A stretch of 64,000 nt of DNA. It comes from Tranzscheliella williamsii (lineage: Eukaryota > Basidiomycota > Ustilaginomycetes > Ustilaginales > Ustilaginaceae). The stretch covers positions 1-64,000 of the forward strand of contig JALBYF010000018.1 of assembly GCA_023212725.1 (NCBI GenBank). The letters are read 5' to 3'. The notes under the pieces are model-generated. The model did no database searches. It worked only from the letters and a program-made list of their open reading frames with translations, and was not told the origin of the DNA. Position 1 is the stretch's first letter, and each line of letters opens with the position of its first letter. This document shows positions 50,539 through 62,020 of this stretch, one piece after another. The translations under genes and the position numbers were made by a program.

Positions 50539-53500
50539 TTATATTACGTCGTATGGGCGCTTACTGCCGCCGCTATGTGCATACCCTCCAGTGTCGTCGC
50601 CGTCGCCTCCATCTTCGTCAATGTCTTTGATTCTGTCTGTAGCATTCTTGCCGTCTTCCGCCTCGACATCGTTACTTTCGTCCTCATCGCTCGCAACTTG
50701 AGACGGTAGGCAGCTGGGCAGGTGCGGTCCGAACGTCTCGCTCGATAGCGGGGGCGAGTACTCGTTGAAAGCCTCTCGGGGCGGAGACGGATCTGCGAGC
50801 AAGAGAGAGCGGAAAGCCTCGCGGCTTTTCAAGTCGTCCAGACACGGCCACAACGCCTTGTCTTGGATGCCTCGTAGGTCGAGGAGGTTCGACTTCAGCG
50901 CTTTTGCTCTTGCGCTGCGGGGACGTAAGAGCACGTGTCCTGGGGCTGCCTTGAAGACCGTCTCTGTTCCGATGTCGAAAAGGATTGTAAGGAACCCTCG
51001 TTCGCTCAACCTCGGTGCGCCTCCCTTGGCACTAGCGACGCGGGGGCCAAATATACTGTCCTTTTGCAAAGCAGAAGCACCACGAGCTCGGCGTTTATTT
51101 TTGACCTCCCATGCAATGAAAGTCATGTGGCCCGGAGCGGCGGTTTCTTCCACAATCTGGTGCATTTCTGCAGGGTTTGTGGTCCGCGGACAGGAGTCAA
51201 TCTCGTCAACGAAGGGCGAGTTCAGGTCGCCGACGAAAACGGGGACGATACCGTCGATACCGTACTGTTCGTGGGCGGTCTGAATAGCGACACCGCGTTT
51301 CCAGCATCCCCAGAGAAATTCGGGTGTGATTGTCTCGATATTGCGGGGGAGAGTATCAAAATGTGTAAAATTAATCCATCCCCTACAACCTTGCCCCTTG
51401 ATCGTACCGCTCATATCCCTGAGCGGCGATTCGATCGCTTCCATCATCGATGCCGGAAGGTTGACCAGCGACTTGATAAAGGCCGTGAACTCGACCGGCT
51501 GGCTGAGAAAATGCATTCGCTGCTCGAGGTTTGGCTCGTGGAACTGTCCTTGCGACCCTGCAGCACCAAAGGTCCGCAATTTAACTGCGTCCCAGGCAGT
51601 GGTTAGCAGAACGCGAACGATGAACTCGCCGAAGGATCCTGCAATCGAATATTGGTTCTTAGACGAGATCAGCAGGCTTTTGAGAACCTTGAGGATATCA
51701 TCGTACTGCACTCTGTTTCGAGATTCATACAATGGTATCATAAAATCTGCTGCTGTTATAGCCAGTACTGGCTCCGAAGGCGCAACGACTTCGATCTTGT
51801 CGTAATCGATTACGGATTTGAGTACGCGCATATGACGGTCAACCGAGTCGATTGCCATTAAGGGCATTTCGCCCAGTATCCCACCAGCAGAGTTATGAAT
51901 CGGGATGAGATGCAGCGCAAGACGAGAGGCGAGGATGTTGAAGACGACAGTCTTACTCGCCCCTTTACTTTCTTGGTCGTACAAGAGCTTGATTCGTGGC
52001 AAACCCCAAAAGTTATCCCGACGGTGGAAAAACCAGAGTGGCCGTCCATAGCATCGCAAGTGCTCGATGCTGGCGGCACCTTCAGCGCTCGCAAGGGATT
52101 TTTGCGAGCTACACATGACATCAAAACCTAGATTGTTGAAAGTAGGCAGCATGGGCATAGTTTGTTCGCGCTGTGATCGGTGTTGAGGATCACCAGATGC
52201 AAGTTTCGCAGCACAGCTGTTTGTGCTAAGTAGCACCAGCCATAAGCATACCTTCGTTTCCTGTTCCAGCGCTTTTAGGTGATTCCAGGCTCGTCGCAGG
52301 CTAATAAGCTGGTTGCTGTTGCCCTGGACTTGTACCTTTGAGGCAACGTCGATTTCAACGCATTCGTCGAAAGCCACGAAGGCGGTGAACGGGCTTGACA
52401 CCGTCTCGGGTGACTTGCAGTCTGCTGAGATGGTTCTCAGATAAGCGCAGGCTGCGCCAAGATGGCGAGAGAGGTTCCGTACACTTGCATCCAAAAAGAA
52501 GCGGAAGACAACGTTTGTTGAGGAGTCGAGCTTGGGATCCAAGTTTTCCCATGAAGAAATATTTTCGTCCGCAAGTTTCCGAACAGCCTCGAACAGATCA
52601 TTGCGGTCGTGGTTAATGCCTCCGGAGCTCACTGGGAAGGTATTGAGCCCCTTGAGGTATTCAATCTTGCCCTCTGCTGAGCTGATGGGCTCCAATTTCT
52701 CTGCGATTGTCTCAAACCAGGCACCCAGGTAGGCACCCACTTGCACGTCAGTGTCCAGGCCTAATTTGTCGGTGCAGTAAGAGAAGAATTCCATTACGCC
52801 GACGTCTCTCAGAGGGAAGCCGTGGCGGGAGAGAACAGCGGACTGCTCGCGCAGGCAGATATATAGCAGGGGAGCTTTGCGACCGAGCTCCAGGACCATC
52901 CTTGTTTTGCCTGTACCGCTGGACTGCACGATCGCCGTGCCTTTCCAATACGGCTCTTTCTCGGTGACATCCGAGAATTCAGCTTGCACGCACTTGACGA
53001 AGCTGAGAAAGCGGTCGTGCGCTTTGCCCCGATAAGGAGCAAGCAGGCCACGGGTAAGGTAGCTGACGAGCCCGGGATCTTGCTCATCATTTCGAGAAGC
53101 CTCTCCGGGTACGATTGCCGGTGCTGGTATTACAGAAACGAAATACGCCGTTGCAAGATCATCGTCAAACCCTCTCGAAGCAACACGGTCCTGCGTCTTC
53201 TTGAGGGCCAGGCTGATGTTGTCGGATTGGAGGCGCGGGATTGGGGGAAAGGGACTGATTCGGCTTTGTACTGCACGGAGCTGGAACTCAAGAGGTGTAA
53301 TGAACACGTCCGGTATTTGCTGAGATGAAGATACCGAACGGAGCAACAGAAAGCATGAAACAAGGGCGCCCCATTCCATTGGACACAACTTTCGAGCCTG
53401 TGACTGAAGAGTTTGAGCGGATGCATTGCTCGGCGAAGAATTGATGATGCTCTGCAGCGGTTGTGGACGATTCGGCGGCGTCTTGGGATCAGCAGCACTG

Positions 53501-53721
53501 CGTTTATAGCTGGATGTGATAGTGCTGTTATACAGCTGTGTGGCTGTTGTCAAAAATGCCGCTACCGGTAGCGTACCGCTCTGTTCGGCGCAAAACTGCT
53601 TGATTGCTTCACCGAGAACACTTAGATCTGTGTTCGTGGACTCAACACATGAGGCCGGATCGCATGCTTTCCTCAAGCTGGTGAGATATGTTGCAGCGAG
53701 TGTGTTGGAGGCAGCGAGCAT
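50539..53721 (-). CDS. P-loop ATPase with C-terminal PD-(D/E)XK-like region (CRN/fungal effector-type family)
   Basis: 1060 residues, single exon, start ATG at 53721. It has no signal peptide. Residues 1-240 are helical with a hydrophobic patch (SCFLLLRSV) but no confident transmembrane helix. Walker A is SSGTGKT within IVQSSGTGKTRMVLELGRKA (about 267-273), and Walker B-like FVAFDEC is near 447-453. The C-terminal third contains GIDGIVPVFVGD (Asp823) and WEVKNK (Glu872, Lys874), spaced as in PD-(D/E)XK endonucleases (D...ExK). This ATPase-plus-restriction-endonuclease layout resembles the fungal proteins grouped with Crinkler (CRN)/RHS-type transposon-derived genes in comparative analyses. 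The assignment rests on motif pattern alone. The tail is acidic and disordered. Its position beside repeat-bearing DNA supports an accessory origin. Confidence 0.65.
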   Translation of the reverse strand: MLAASNTLAATYLTSLRKACDPASCVESTNTDLSVLGEAIKQFCAEQSGTLPVAAFLTTATQLYNSTITSSYKRSAADPKTPPNRPQPLQSIINSSPSNASAQTLQSQARKLCPMEWGALVSCFLLLRSVSSSQQIPDVFITPLEFQLRAVQSRISPFPPIPRLQSDNISLALKKTQDRVASRGFDDDLATAYFVSVIPAPAIVPGEASRNDEQDPGLVSYLTRGLLAPYRGKAHDRFLSFVKCVQAEFSDVTEKEPYWKGTAIVQSSGTGKTRMVLELGRKAPLLYICLREQSAVLSRHGFPLRDVGVMEFFSYCTDKLGLDTDVQVGAYLGAWFETIAEKLEPISSAEGKIEYLKGLNTFPVSSGGINHDRNDLFEAVRKLADENISSWENLDPKLDSSTNVVFRFFLDASVRNLSRHLGAACAYLRTISADCKSPETVSSPFTAFVAFDECVEIDVASKVQVQGNSNQLISLRRAWNHLKALEQETKVCLWLVLLSTNSCAAKLASGDPQHRSQREQTMPMLPTFNNLGFDVMCSSQKSLASAEGAASIEHLRCYGRPLWFFHRRDNFWGLPRIKLLYDQESKGASKTVVFNILASRLALHLIPIHNSAGGILGEMPLMAIDSVDRHMRVLKSVIDYDKIEVVAPSEPVLAITAADFMIPLYESRNRVQYDDILKVLKSLLISSKNQYSIAGSFGEFIVRVLLTTAWDAVKLRTFGAAGSQGQFHEPNLEQRMHFLSQPVEFTAFIKSLVNLPASMMEAIESPLRDMSGTIKGQGCRGWINFTHFDTLPRNIETITPEFLWGCWKRGVAIQTAHEQYGIDGIVPVFVGDLNSPFVDEIDSCPRTTNPAEMHQIVEETAAPGHMTFIAWEVKNKRRARGASALQKDSIFGPRVASAKGGAPRLSERGFLTILFDIGTETVFKAAPGHVLLRPRSARAKALKSNLLDLRGIQDKALWPCLDDLKSREAFRSLLLADPSPPREAFNEYSPPLSSETFGPHLPSCLPSQVASDEDESNDVEAEDGKNATDRIKDIDEDGGDGDDTGGYAHSGGSKRPYDVI

Positions 53722-54095: not shown

Positions 54096-54940
54096 ACCCA
54101 CCAGGCAACCTCCACAATGCATGCCAAAACTGGGGCCAAGCCTTCAGCACCCCCATGTCAAACCGCAAACCAGCCAATGACATTGCACTGGCCCCCAACC
54201 ATGACCTGACCTACAATGACAACTCTGCCAATGACAATGACTCTCCTCCACCAGCCAACTCCAGGGACATGGAACAGCAGGTAGTTGCCAATGCCTTCAA
54301 CTCTCTCAAGGACCTCCTCCTCAACACTTGCAAAGGTTCAACTCAATGGTGGCTTGGTGTTATGCCCCAGGGTCTGGCAACCTCCAGTGGCTGGTGGATT
54401 TGCCAAGCATGGGGAAATCACCGGAGGCTGCAGTGTGCCGGTGGTGGTACCACTATGAGTGCTCAACAACAATAGCATTGTCAATGATCAAGGTTGTATA
54501 CTTCTCCTCCTGTTGTGCAATAGACTAAATACATTTGTCGACCAGGGGGCAAGGGCAAGTGGGGAGAGGAGGCATTTAAATAGGACGATGCCTGGTGAGC
54601 AAGTCTGCAACAAGAGACTGATGAGGTGCCCAAGGTGGGTGTCTTGTCGGCCAGTGGTACTACCACGGCCGCGGGCCGGCGCGCTGAAATGAGCTGGCCC
54701 AATAAGGAAGACGCACACACAAAGGGCTAGGAAAGGAAAGCTAGGTAATGCGATTCACATAGTGACCGGTTACCTGTTGTCACGCCGTAAAGCATGCTCA
54801 GCGAAAAGCTGTCCGACTTGCGTCTCGAACCGTTGACCTCTTATCACGTGCCCCTTCCCGATCCCCCGATTCGCGAAGGTTTTCAGCAGAAGCTCACCAG
54901 CAGCGCCGGTCGCAATAATGTGGATAGCGCATCAGACTGA

Positions 54941-55110
54941 CCTTCTGGTTAATCTTGCACAACAGATTCCAAGCAGGAGGTGCAGTCCTGGTGATGTCGA
55001 CCAGATGCTTACCAGATTAACCTTCTGTTTGAAATCGTGCAGCAGATTGTAAACAGATGACTGGTTGTCAGACTAGTCTGGTAAATCACAACAGATTACA
55101 AACAGATGCC
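54941..55110. repeat. Diverged direct repeats of an AACAGATT-containing unit
   Basis: CTTCTGGTTAATCTTGCACA followed by ACAGATTCC, and CTTCTGTTTGAAATCGTGCA followed by GCAGATTGTAAACAGATG, share spacing of about 80 bp; a third CAGATTACAAACAGATG occurs near 55091. Units are 60-75% alike by eye and interrupted. Confidence 0.5.
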
Positions 55111-55267
55111 GGCATCTGCACGAAATTCAAATCAGACTTGACCCAGAACGGCTGGTTTGAATCTGCTATACAAAACCAGAGGACGCGCTTTTATGTTGTG
55201 AATTCTGCCTCCCCCTGACCAGCCCTTTGTTAAGTTCGGTATGGCCACGATCTAGAAAGTCATTCAC

Positions 55268-60796: not shown

Positions 60797-61009
60797 CCGT
60801 GCTCACTTGCGCGTATCTGTCTGGCTCCACTCCATCTCACTCGCCCTTGTGTGTGACAGTGTGAGGCACATGCAGATATTCGTTCACAAAATGTCACCAT
60901 TACACTATCGTCAAATTGTTGATTGCGTATAGCGTGAAGGGGTTGAGGTTGTGCGAGCGTCAGTGCCGCATATAGTACGGAACCGCAGCTGCAGCAGGCA
61001 GGAGGTGCT

Positions 61010-62020
61010 TTACTGTTTTGGAAGCAGAGCGGCGAGCCTGGCTTGTGCGATGGCTTGCGCGCGCTGCTGGACGGCGGTGTGGCCGAGGGCGTGGAGGCGC
61101 TCCTGGTGGACGAGCTGGGCTCTGTCGCGCAGGCGCTCTTTCCAGCGCTGGACGGGGCGTGGTGCGGCGGAGGTCGGGTGGTTCGGGGAGGTGCCGCGGT
61201 GCGCGAGCGTTTCCTGGCGCAGGGATGCCAGCTGTGCCATCTGTGCGTCTCTTTCGTGCGCGGTGGCTGCGAAGCGGTAGAAGGCGGCGCCGCGGTGGCG
61301 CGTCTCGTGCGCTGGGTCGAAGTGGGTGGCTGCCGGCGGTGGGTGGATGGCTCTAGCGGCGGGGACGTAGACGGGGAAGCTGGTGGCAGGGCCGTACAGC
61401 GCCTGGGGCTCGGGGGAGCGTGGGCGGGGGGTTGCGCCGCTGTACTGTGCGGGGAGGAACTCGCGTGGCACTTCGCTCAGCGGTGCCGTGCGCGTCCGCC
61501 CAAACTCGTCCTCATATTCGACCATCGTGTCGTCGGGCGCGTAGGGCGTCGGTGCACGCTCGTCGTCCTCGTCCGAGCCGCTCTCCGCGGCCGCTTCAGC
61601 GGCTTTACGTGTCCAGTCGATGCTGCCCTGCTCCAGGAGGTCGTTGCTCACCCCACCGTACTTGCCCGCGCTCAGCTGACGGTAGAGCCGCGCCTTGCGC
61701 TCCAGGTTCGCCCGAATCGAGTCAAGCGTTGGCGGAGGCGTATGTTCCCGGGCATCCCCCCGCTCGCGTTCGCCAGCACTCCCGCCCCGCATCCCCACCT
61801 CGCCACCTCGGCCCGCGACAAACCGGGGATCCAGCTTCCGCTTGCCTTTCCCAACCCGCCCATCGTCGTCGTACACCGCCCTTGCCTTGCGCTTCCCCTT
61901 CACATCCGCTTCCCCCGCCGAAGCGCCCCTGTCCGCCCACTGCGTCACTCCGTGCGAGCCGGACTCGGCCTTCGCTCGCGCCAGCTCCGCTTTTAGGTTG
62001 AGAAACGACGACGAACTCAT
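61010..62020 (-). CDS. CCDC174-like protein (DUF4078)
   Basis: 336 residues, ATG at 62020. Start MSSSSFLNLKAELARAKAES, a predicted helix. The segment YEDEFGRTRTAPLSEVPREF (about 168-187) is the DUF4078 signature (YxDEFGRxR) of CCDC174 proteins; LEQGSIDWTRKAAEAA (129-144) precedes it. The last 80 residues form a charged helical region (AQLASLRQETLAHRG, RWKERLRDRAQLVHQERLHA). Human CCDC174 is a nuclear, exon-junction/splicing-linked protein; the fungal role is inferred. The body is Arg/Ala/Glu-rich, in keeping with a nuclear RNP factor. A plus-strand ORF of 317 codons on the opposite strand is a GC shadow. Confidence 0.85.
   Translation of the reverse strand: MSSSSFLNLKAELARAKAESGSHGVTQWADRGASAGEADVKGKRKARAVYDDDGRVGKGKRKLDPRFVAGRGGEVGMRGGSAGERERGDAREHTPPPTLDSIRANLERKARLYRQLSAGKYGGVSNDLLEQGSIDWTRKAAEAAAESGSDEDDERAPTPYAPDDTMVEYEDEFGRTRTAPLSEVPREFLPAQYSGATPRPRSPEPQALYGPATSFPVYVPAARAIHPPPAATHFDPAHETRHRGAAFYRFAATAHERDAQMAQLASLRQETLAHRGTSPNHPTSAAPRPVQRWKERLRDRAQLVHQERLHALGHTAVQQRAQAIAQARLAALLPKQ

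What the first reader, a model, noticed from the sequence alone, without database searches (positions are those of the whole stretch)
50539..53721. Intact CRN-like ATPase plus nuclease gene beside decayed DNA
A 1060-codon uninterrupted gene pairs a P-loop (SSGTGKT, Walker B FVAFDEC) with a C-terminal D...ExK pattern (Asp823, Glu872, Lys874), the layout of fungal CRN/RHS-type proteins derived from transposons. It has no signal peptide, an acidic tail, and sits next to the least gene-like DNA in the window, while the other neighbours are conserved housekeeping genes. An intact single-copy gene of this type in a streamlined genome would be interesting as a domesticated or recently inserted element. 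The nuclease assignment is by motif only.
Basis: partly seen in the sequence, partly recalled or inferred. Interest (0 to 1): 0.75.

Follow-up and report, generated by a model that had tools for sequence, protein, structure and literature searches.

The report
Smut ATPase-nuclease gene, many copies
The gene encodes an ATP-binding protein with a probable DNA- or RNA-cutting domain and belongs to a large, unnamed gene family of smut fungi, so it is not the lone inserted gene it first seemed, but what the family does is still unknown.

The parts
50539..53721 (-). ORF of 1060 aa, ATPase-nuclease family member (stop TAA at 50539-50541)
   Evidence: homologues; paralogues
53077..53721 (-). residues 1-215: helical N-terminal part, less conserved than the folded parts after it (45.5% mean identity among five close paralogues); residues 1-29 and 69-90 low confidence in the model
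52027..53076 (-). residues 216-565: AAA+/STAND-like P-loop ATPase core
   Evidence: model; structural neighbours Avs3, ORC subunits, archaeal ATPase 2qen
52903..52926 (-). Walker A QSSGTGKT (residues 266-273)
52360..52380 (-). Walker B FVAFDEC (residues 448-454)
51772..52026 (-). residues 566-650: winged-helix-like part, inferred from the order of helices and strands and from the reach of the 2qen match to residue 659; not tested alone
51397..51771 (-). residues 651-775: helical linker to the nuclease-like domain
50713..51396 (-). residues 776-1003: PD-(D/E)XK nuclease-like domain
51253..51255 (-). Asp823 codon
51100..51108 (-). Glu872-Val873-Lys874 codons
50542..50712 (-). residues 1004-1060: low-confidence (probably disordered) acidic tail
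54358..54684 (.). dispersed repeat relic (other copies in the genome at 73-86% identity)
54778..54873 (.). second dispersed repeat relic (other copies at 78-90% identity)
54933..55203 (.). third dispersed repeat relic (91% and 86% copies on C82 and C92)

Best explanation
The gene is one intact copy of a large smut gene family that turns over by duplication and decay. Each full-length protein examined couples a STAND/ORC-like AAA+ ATPase to a C-terminal PD-(D/E)XK-type domain and carries a faster-changing helical N-terminal part. Proposed working: the N-terminal part (and the winged-helix-like part) senses or binds a target inside the fungal cell; ATP binding or hydrolysis changes the assembly state; this positions or releases the nuclease, which cuts nucleic acid using D823, E872 and K874. 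The most likely role is an intracellular conflict protein acting on invading or mobile nucleic acid, or on rival copies. Shown: the frame, the motifs, their conservation, the copy number, purifying selection in the computable pairs, and predicted folds. Inferred: nuclease activity, ATP gating, the sensor role of the N-terminus, and the biological purpose.
Confidence: 0.5

Rival explanations
1. It is a CRN-like effector exported without a classical signal and acting on plant nuclear DNA, as proposed for NTPase-REase Crinkler proteins.
For: The same broad architecture (NTPase + HTH + REase) is described for CR effectors, and that review reports that signal peptides were ruled out for CRN headers (passages of PMC5289972). 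Most named relatives are, from recall, plant-parasitic smuts.
Against: No Crinkler header match in the protein at E <= 1; no signal-like start; relatives in Pseudozyma flocculosa and Moesziomyces antarcticus, which from recall are not plant pathogens; about half of the 45 places are fragments or relics, though decay also occurs in effector families.
Confidence: 0.2
2. It is a selfish or transposon-derived gene whose nuclease helps its own spread.
For: Dispersed copies on 38 contigs, lineage-specific expansion, repeat relics nearby, listed family tags not adjacent to the WLM neighbour's tag in six species, and at least one close pair of partial copies on other contigs (C41 and C106, 94% DNA identity over 1.5 kb).
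Against: No terminal repeats of 14 bases or more around the copy (shorter ones and short target-site duplications are not excluded); similarity between the window copy and its four closest paralogues stays within the gene, with no shared flanks; purifying selection in the computable pairs; the window clade itself is old, 58-67% protein identity to the four nearest copies.
Confidence: 0.2
3. It is a chromosome-end or DNA-repair factor amplified with subtelomeres.
For: Family places on 5 of 8 contigs with a telomere array at or near an end against 33 of 127 others (one-sided Fisher p 0.04); a fragment 0.7 kb from a telomere array (C104); UMAG_04693 at Chr17:1396-4642 with copy number 1.80 in an H2O2-adapted strain (passage of PMC11452521).
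Against: 10 of the 12 full-length copies of the window's type, the window one included, lie 16 kb or more from a contig end; the association is weak, was tested after the data were seen, and assembly breaks at repeats confound it.
Confidence: 0.1

Closest known systems
Ustilaginaceae 'conserved hypothetical' proteins (for example UMAG_03635, UMAG_04693, SPSC_06351, UTRI_04414)
   Same: The 57 best hits align over 40-92% of the length at 30-37% identity; the motifs are shared.
   Different: The window clade is specific to this genome in the tree; N-terminus and tail are poorly alignable. The record names seen assign no function.
CR/CRN effectors with NTPase + REase (Crinkler superfamily)
   Same: P-loop NTPase followed by a winged-helix-like part and a REase-like domain (review passages; models; neighbours).
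   Different: No Pfam Crinkler header match; sequence relationship to the CR-REase families could not be tested.
Kinetoplastid RHS proteins
   Same: P-loop ATPase, multicopy, repeat-associated (from recall).
   Different: No RHSP (PF07999) match in the protein; the genome-wide search was silent, as was its control.
Avs/STAND antiviral NTPases
   Different: Nuclease-like domain is C-terminal here (N-terminal in Avs3, from recall); no evidence for target sensing or defence.
McrBC and MspJI-type modification-dependent endonucleases
   Different: One polypeptide, eukaryotic, no modification-reading domain recognised; 3-13% sequence identity over the aligned parts of those rows.

Membership tests
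STAND/ORC-type AAA+ ATPase | Walker A and Walker B | tested here: met
   K272 57 of 57, D452 61 of 61
STAND/ORC-type AAA+ ATPase | AAA+ P-loop fold | tested here: met
STAND/ORC-type AAA+ ATPase | winged helix after the ATPase core | tested here: inconclusive
   suggested by secondary structure and by the 2qen match over 220-659; not tested alone
PD-(D/E)XK nuclease superfamily | D ... (D/E/Q)xK catalytic residues | tested here: met
   Largely conserved in relatives and in all aligned own copies
PD-(D/E)XK nuclease superfamily | alpha-beta core fold | tested here: inconclusive
PD-(D/E)XK nuclease superfamily | nucleic-acid cleavage | not testable with these tools
   needs a bench assay
CRN (Crinkler) effectors | LFLAK/ubiquitin-like header (Pfam PF20147) | tested here: not met
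   0 Pfam families at E <= 1 for the protein. The genome-wide search found none, but its controls rang nowhere, so it says nothing about the genome. Other header types exist.
CRN (Crinkler) effectors | NTPase + HTH + REase C-terminal order | tested here: inconclusive
   order fits, but the HTH and REase folds are weakly supported
CRN (Crinkler) effectors | sequence homology to CR-NTPase/CR-REase families | not tested
   The families of Zhang et al. 2016 are not in the libraries used; the paper is not held
CRN (Crinkler) effectors | export to a host cell | tested here: inconclusive
   No hydrophobic start; unconventional export cannot be tested
RHS proteins | RHSP domain (PF07999) | tested here: not met
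   0 Pfam families at E <= 1 for the protein; the genome search was silent together with its controls
Autonomous transposable element | terminal repeats or shared element ends | tested here: not met
   no enclosing repeats of 14 bases or more, no shared flanks with the fetched paralogues apart from short dispersed repeats
Ustilaginaceae hypothetical-protein family | homology along the ATPase and nuclease parts | tested here: met
   E down to 7e-130

The most novel reading that the evidence does not exclude
Smut fungi carry a cell-autonomous conflict system of dozens of turning-over STAND-ATPase/PD-(D/E)XK proteins, a fungal counterpart of Avs or McrBC, in which a variable N-terminal part recognises the target and ATP gates a nuclease. 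It is used either against mobile or viral nucleic acid or between competing genomes in mating smut cells.
Probability: 0.25. Interest if true: 0.75.

Novelty: new member of a known kind. Interest (0 to 1): 0.42.

Why it matters
Smut genomes sequenced up to 2018 were described as compact and depleted of paralogues and repeats (PMC5897528, passage), so a family with 45 places in 18 Mb is a notable exception. In the records seen the family carries only uncharacterised or hypothetical names, and none of the listings and passages seen in nine literature searches describes its domains. Reading it as ATPase plus probable nuclease gives a concrete, testable activity and catalytic residues, and links smuts to the wider class of NTPase-REase conflict proteins.

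Tried and rejected
Single-copy domesticated gene: rejected. Recent mobile insertion: no enclosing repeats of 14 bases or more, no shared flanks, no odd composition. Prokaryotic or viral relatives: none confirmed (37 and 36 pattern matches, none confirmed by tblastn; only four and three short peptide patterns were scanned, so sensitivity is limited). Viral protein models: nothing at E <= 0.001. PDB sequence search with one protein or with the profile: only chance-level hits. Foldseek on both models: nothing at E <= 0.001; a missing match does not show a new fold. Crinkler and RHSP genome searches were silent, but so were their controls. Rfam at gathering threshold on 45-64 kb, and tRNA scan of the window: nothing. 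Locus-tag synteny is only a hint: lists incomplete, tag order not verified. Both protein searches with the family as query scored only the candidates sharing most words (7994 and 7992), so distant relatives outside smuts cannot be excluded. Rows dropped: P0061 (9% coverage) was left out of alignment A1 but included in A2; 12 of about 23 apparently full-length own copies and 57 of 72 homologues went into the tree; 40 sequences, the window's and 39 homologues, were scanned. At least three rows of the alignment for the domain model (P0069-P0071) share no residue with that domain. Two of seven dN/dS pairs failed by saturation.

Full report
What is there. The minus-strand frame 50539-53721 is a single uninterrupted gene of 1060 codons with an ATG start and TAA stop. 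The stop-to-stop frame is only two codons longer. A conserved frame of this length is not chance. Across an alignment of the window protein and 60 relatives the Walker lysine K272 is kept in 57 of 57 rows with a letter, Walker B D452 in 61 of 61, D823 in 56 of 59, E872 in 48 of 60 with Q in 7 more, and K874 in 56 of 60. The protein gets no Pfam match at E <= 1, and a scan of 40 family members gives seven families, each in one or two members and none better than E 0.005.

Surroundings. The six neighbours scanned have Pfam matches: Mpp10, a methyltransferase (COQ3-like, from recall), a HIT/DcpS-like protein, a WLM (Wss1-type) protein, an alpha/beta hydrolase and a TruB-type pseudouridine synthase. 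Between the gene and the hydrolase, 53.7-55.3 kb holds at least three dispersed repeats with copies elsewhere in the genome at 73-91% identity. GC3 of the gene is 0.581, inside the range of the eleven other window frames measured (0.54-0.70). No direct or inverted repeats of 14 bases or more enclose the gene; shorter ones are not excluded.

Not single-copy. A search of the window's own assembly (18.18 Mb, 135 contigs) gave 47 matches. Three more searches with other members gave 41, 27 and 45. Merging matches within 5 kb (the count is the same at 2 and 10 kb) gives 45 places on 38 contigs. Twenty have long uninterrupted frames of 987-1263 aa and three are in two frames (B-type), so about 23 look full length by frame length. 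The others are fragments, interrupted copies, or copies cut by a contig end. The closest paralogues are 67, 61, 60 and 58% identical. DNA similarity between the window copy and these four stays within the gene. Other members include a closer pair of partial copies (C41 and C106, 94% DNA identity over 1.5 kb). A dN/dS ratio could be computed for five of seven pairs and is 0.06-0.33; three of the five have saturated dS, and the two that do not give 0.21 and 0.33. This indicates purifying selection on the protein.

Relatives and tree. Prokaryote and viral contig collections gave no confirmed relative at the sensitivity used. In a tree of 69 rows the window copy sits in a clade of six copies, all from this genome (SH-aLRT 100); the six other own copies used are in another clade with one unnamed sequence (99). 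So the window copy belongs to a lineage-specific expansion as far as the sampled rows show. Locus tags give a weak hint about synteny: in six species that have both (U. trichophora, U. loliicola, U. tritici, S. graminicola, S. scitamineum, P. flocculosa), no listed family tag is next to the tag of the WLM neighbour (for example UTRI_04919 against 04414, 04664, 05406 and others; PFL1_00765 against 00655 and 04930).

How it probably works. Inside the fungal cell an ATP-driven STAND/AAA+ module, with a faster-changing N-terminal part as input (45.5% identity among five close paralogues against 64-74% in the ATPase, winged-helix-like and nuclease parts and 58% in the linker), controls a nuclease at the other end. 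The frame, motifs, conservation, copy number and predicted folds are shown. Catalysis, gating, the sensor role and purpose are inferred. The rivals are a CRN-like exported effector, a selfish gene, and a chromosome-end factor. The first is weakened by the lack of a Crinkler header match and of a signal-like start and by members in yeasts not known as plant pathogens (recall). The second is weakened by the lack of element ends and by purifying selection. The third rests on a weak, post hoc telomere association (5 of 8 contigs with a telomere array at or near an end against 33 of 127; p 0.04) and on one published chromosome-end copy that gained copies in a peroxide-adapted strain (PMC11452521, passage seen).

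Literature. Nine full-text searches were made. Passages were seen of PMC5289972, PMC5811872, PMC6131194, PMC9815663, PMC10532341, PMC5897528 and PMC11452521, and of PMC5811872 section 18 in full; other papers were seen only as search listings. None of what was seen describes this family's domains. PMC11452521 calls UMAG_04693 a putative protein with a helicase ATP-binding domain, which differs from the present reading. The primary paper on CR effectors (Zhang et al. 2016) is not held and is known here only through the review PMC5289972.

Verdict. A real, intact and conserved gene, correctly read as ATPase plus probable nuclease, but an ordinary member of a large, unnamed smut family rather than a unique inserted element.

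Noticed in passing
L042:953-994 (G000:C2:269552-269593): A (CCCTAA)n telomeric array lies inside what looks like a decayed B-type family relic, apparently where the Walker B stretch is missing; the contig continues about 49 kb beyond it, so the array is interstitial.
   Followed up: partly
L028:3484-6700 and L040: A second subfamily (C45, C88; C115 by match coordinates only) is split into two frames at about the same place; in L028 the break reads as a GTAAGT...CAG intron between the codons for GRP and LW. The window type and a third type read through there without a break.
   Followed up: partly
L041:755-958: A family fragment lies 0.7 kb from a terminal telomere array on contig C104.
   Followed up: partly
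G000:C1:423-3041, C58:75061-77329, C40:3386-7875: The dispersed repeat found at window 54358-54684 also lies within or beside three other family places; on C1 it sits between pieces of a family relic, as if inserted there.
   Followed up: partly
P0030: A protein recorded under Cichorium endivia (chicory) falls inside the smut family in the tree; probably smut DNA in a plant assembly.
   Followed up: no
UMAG_04693 (PMC11452521): This U. maydis family member lies at Chr17:1396-4642, at the chromosome end, and showed copy number 1.80 in a hydrogen-peroxide-adapted strain (passage seen).
   Followed up: partly
window 61001-62000: A 1 kb stretch of 70% GC with overlapping open frames on both strands (61010-62020 minus, 61043-61996 plus).
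   Followed up: no
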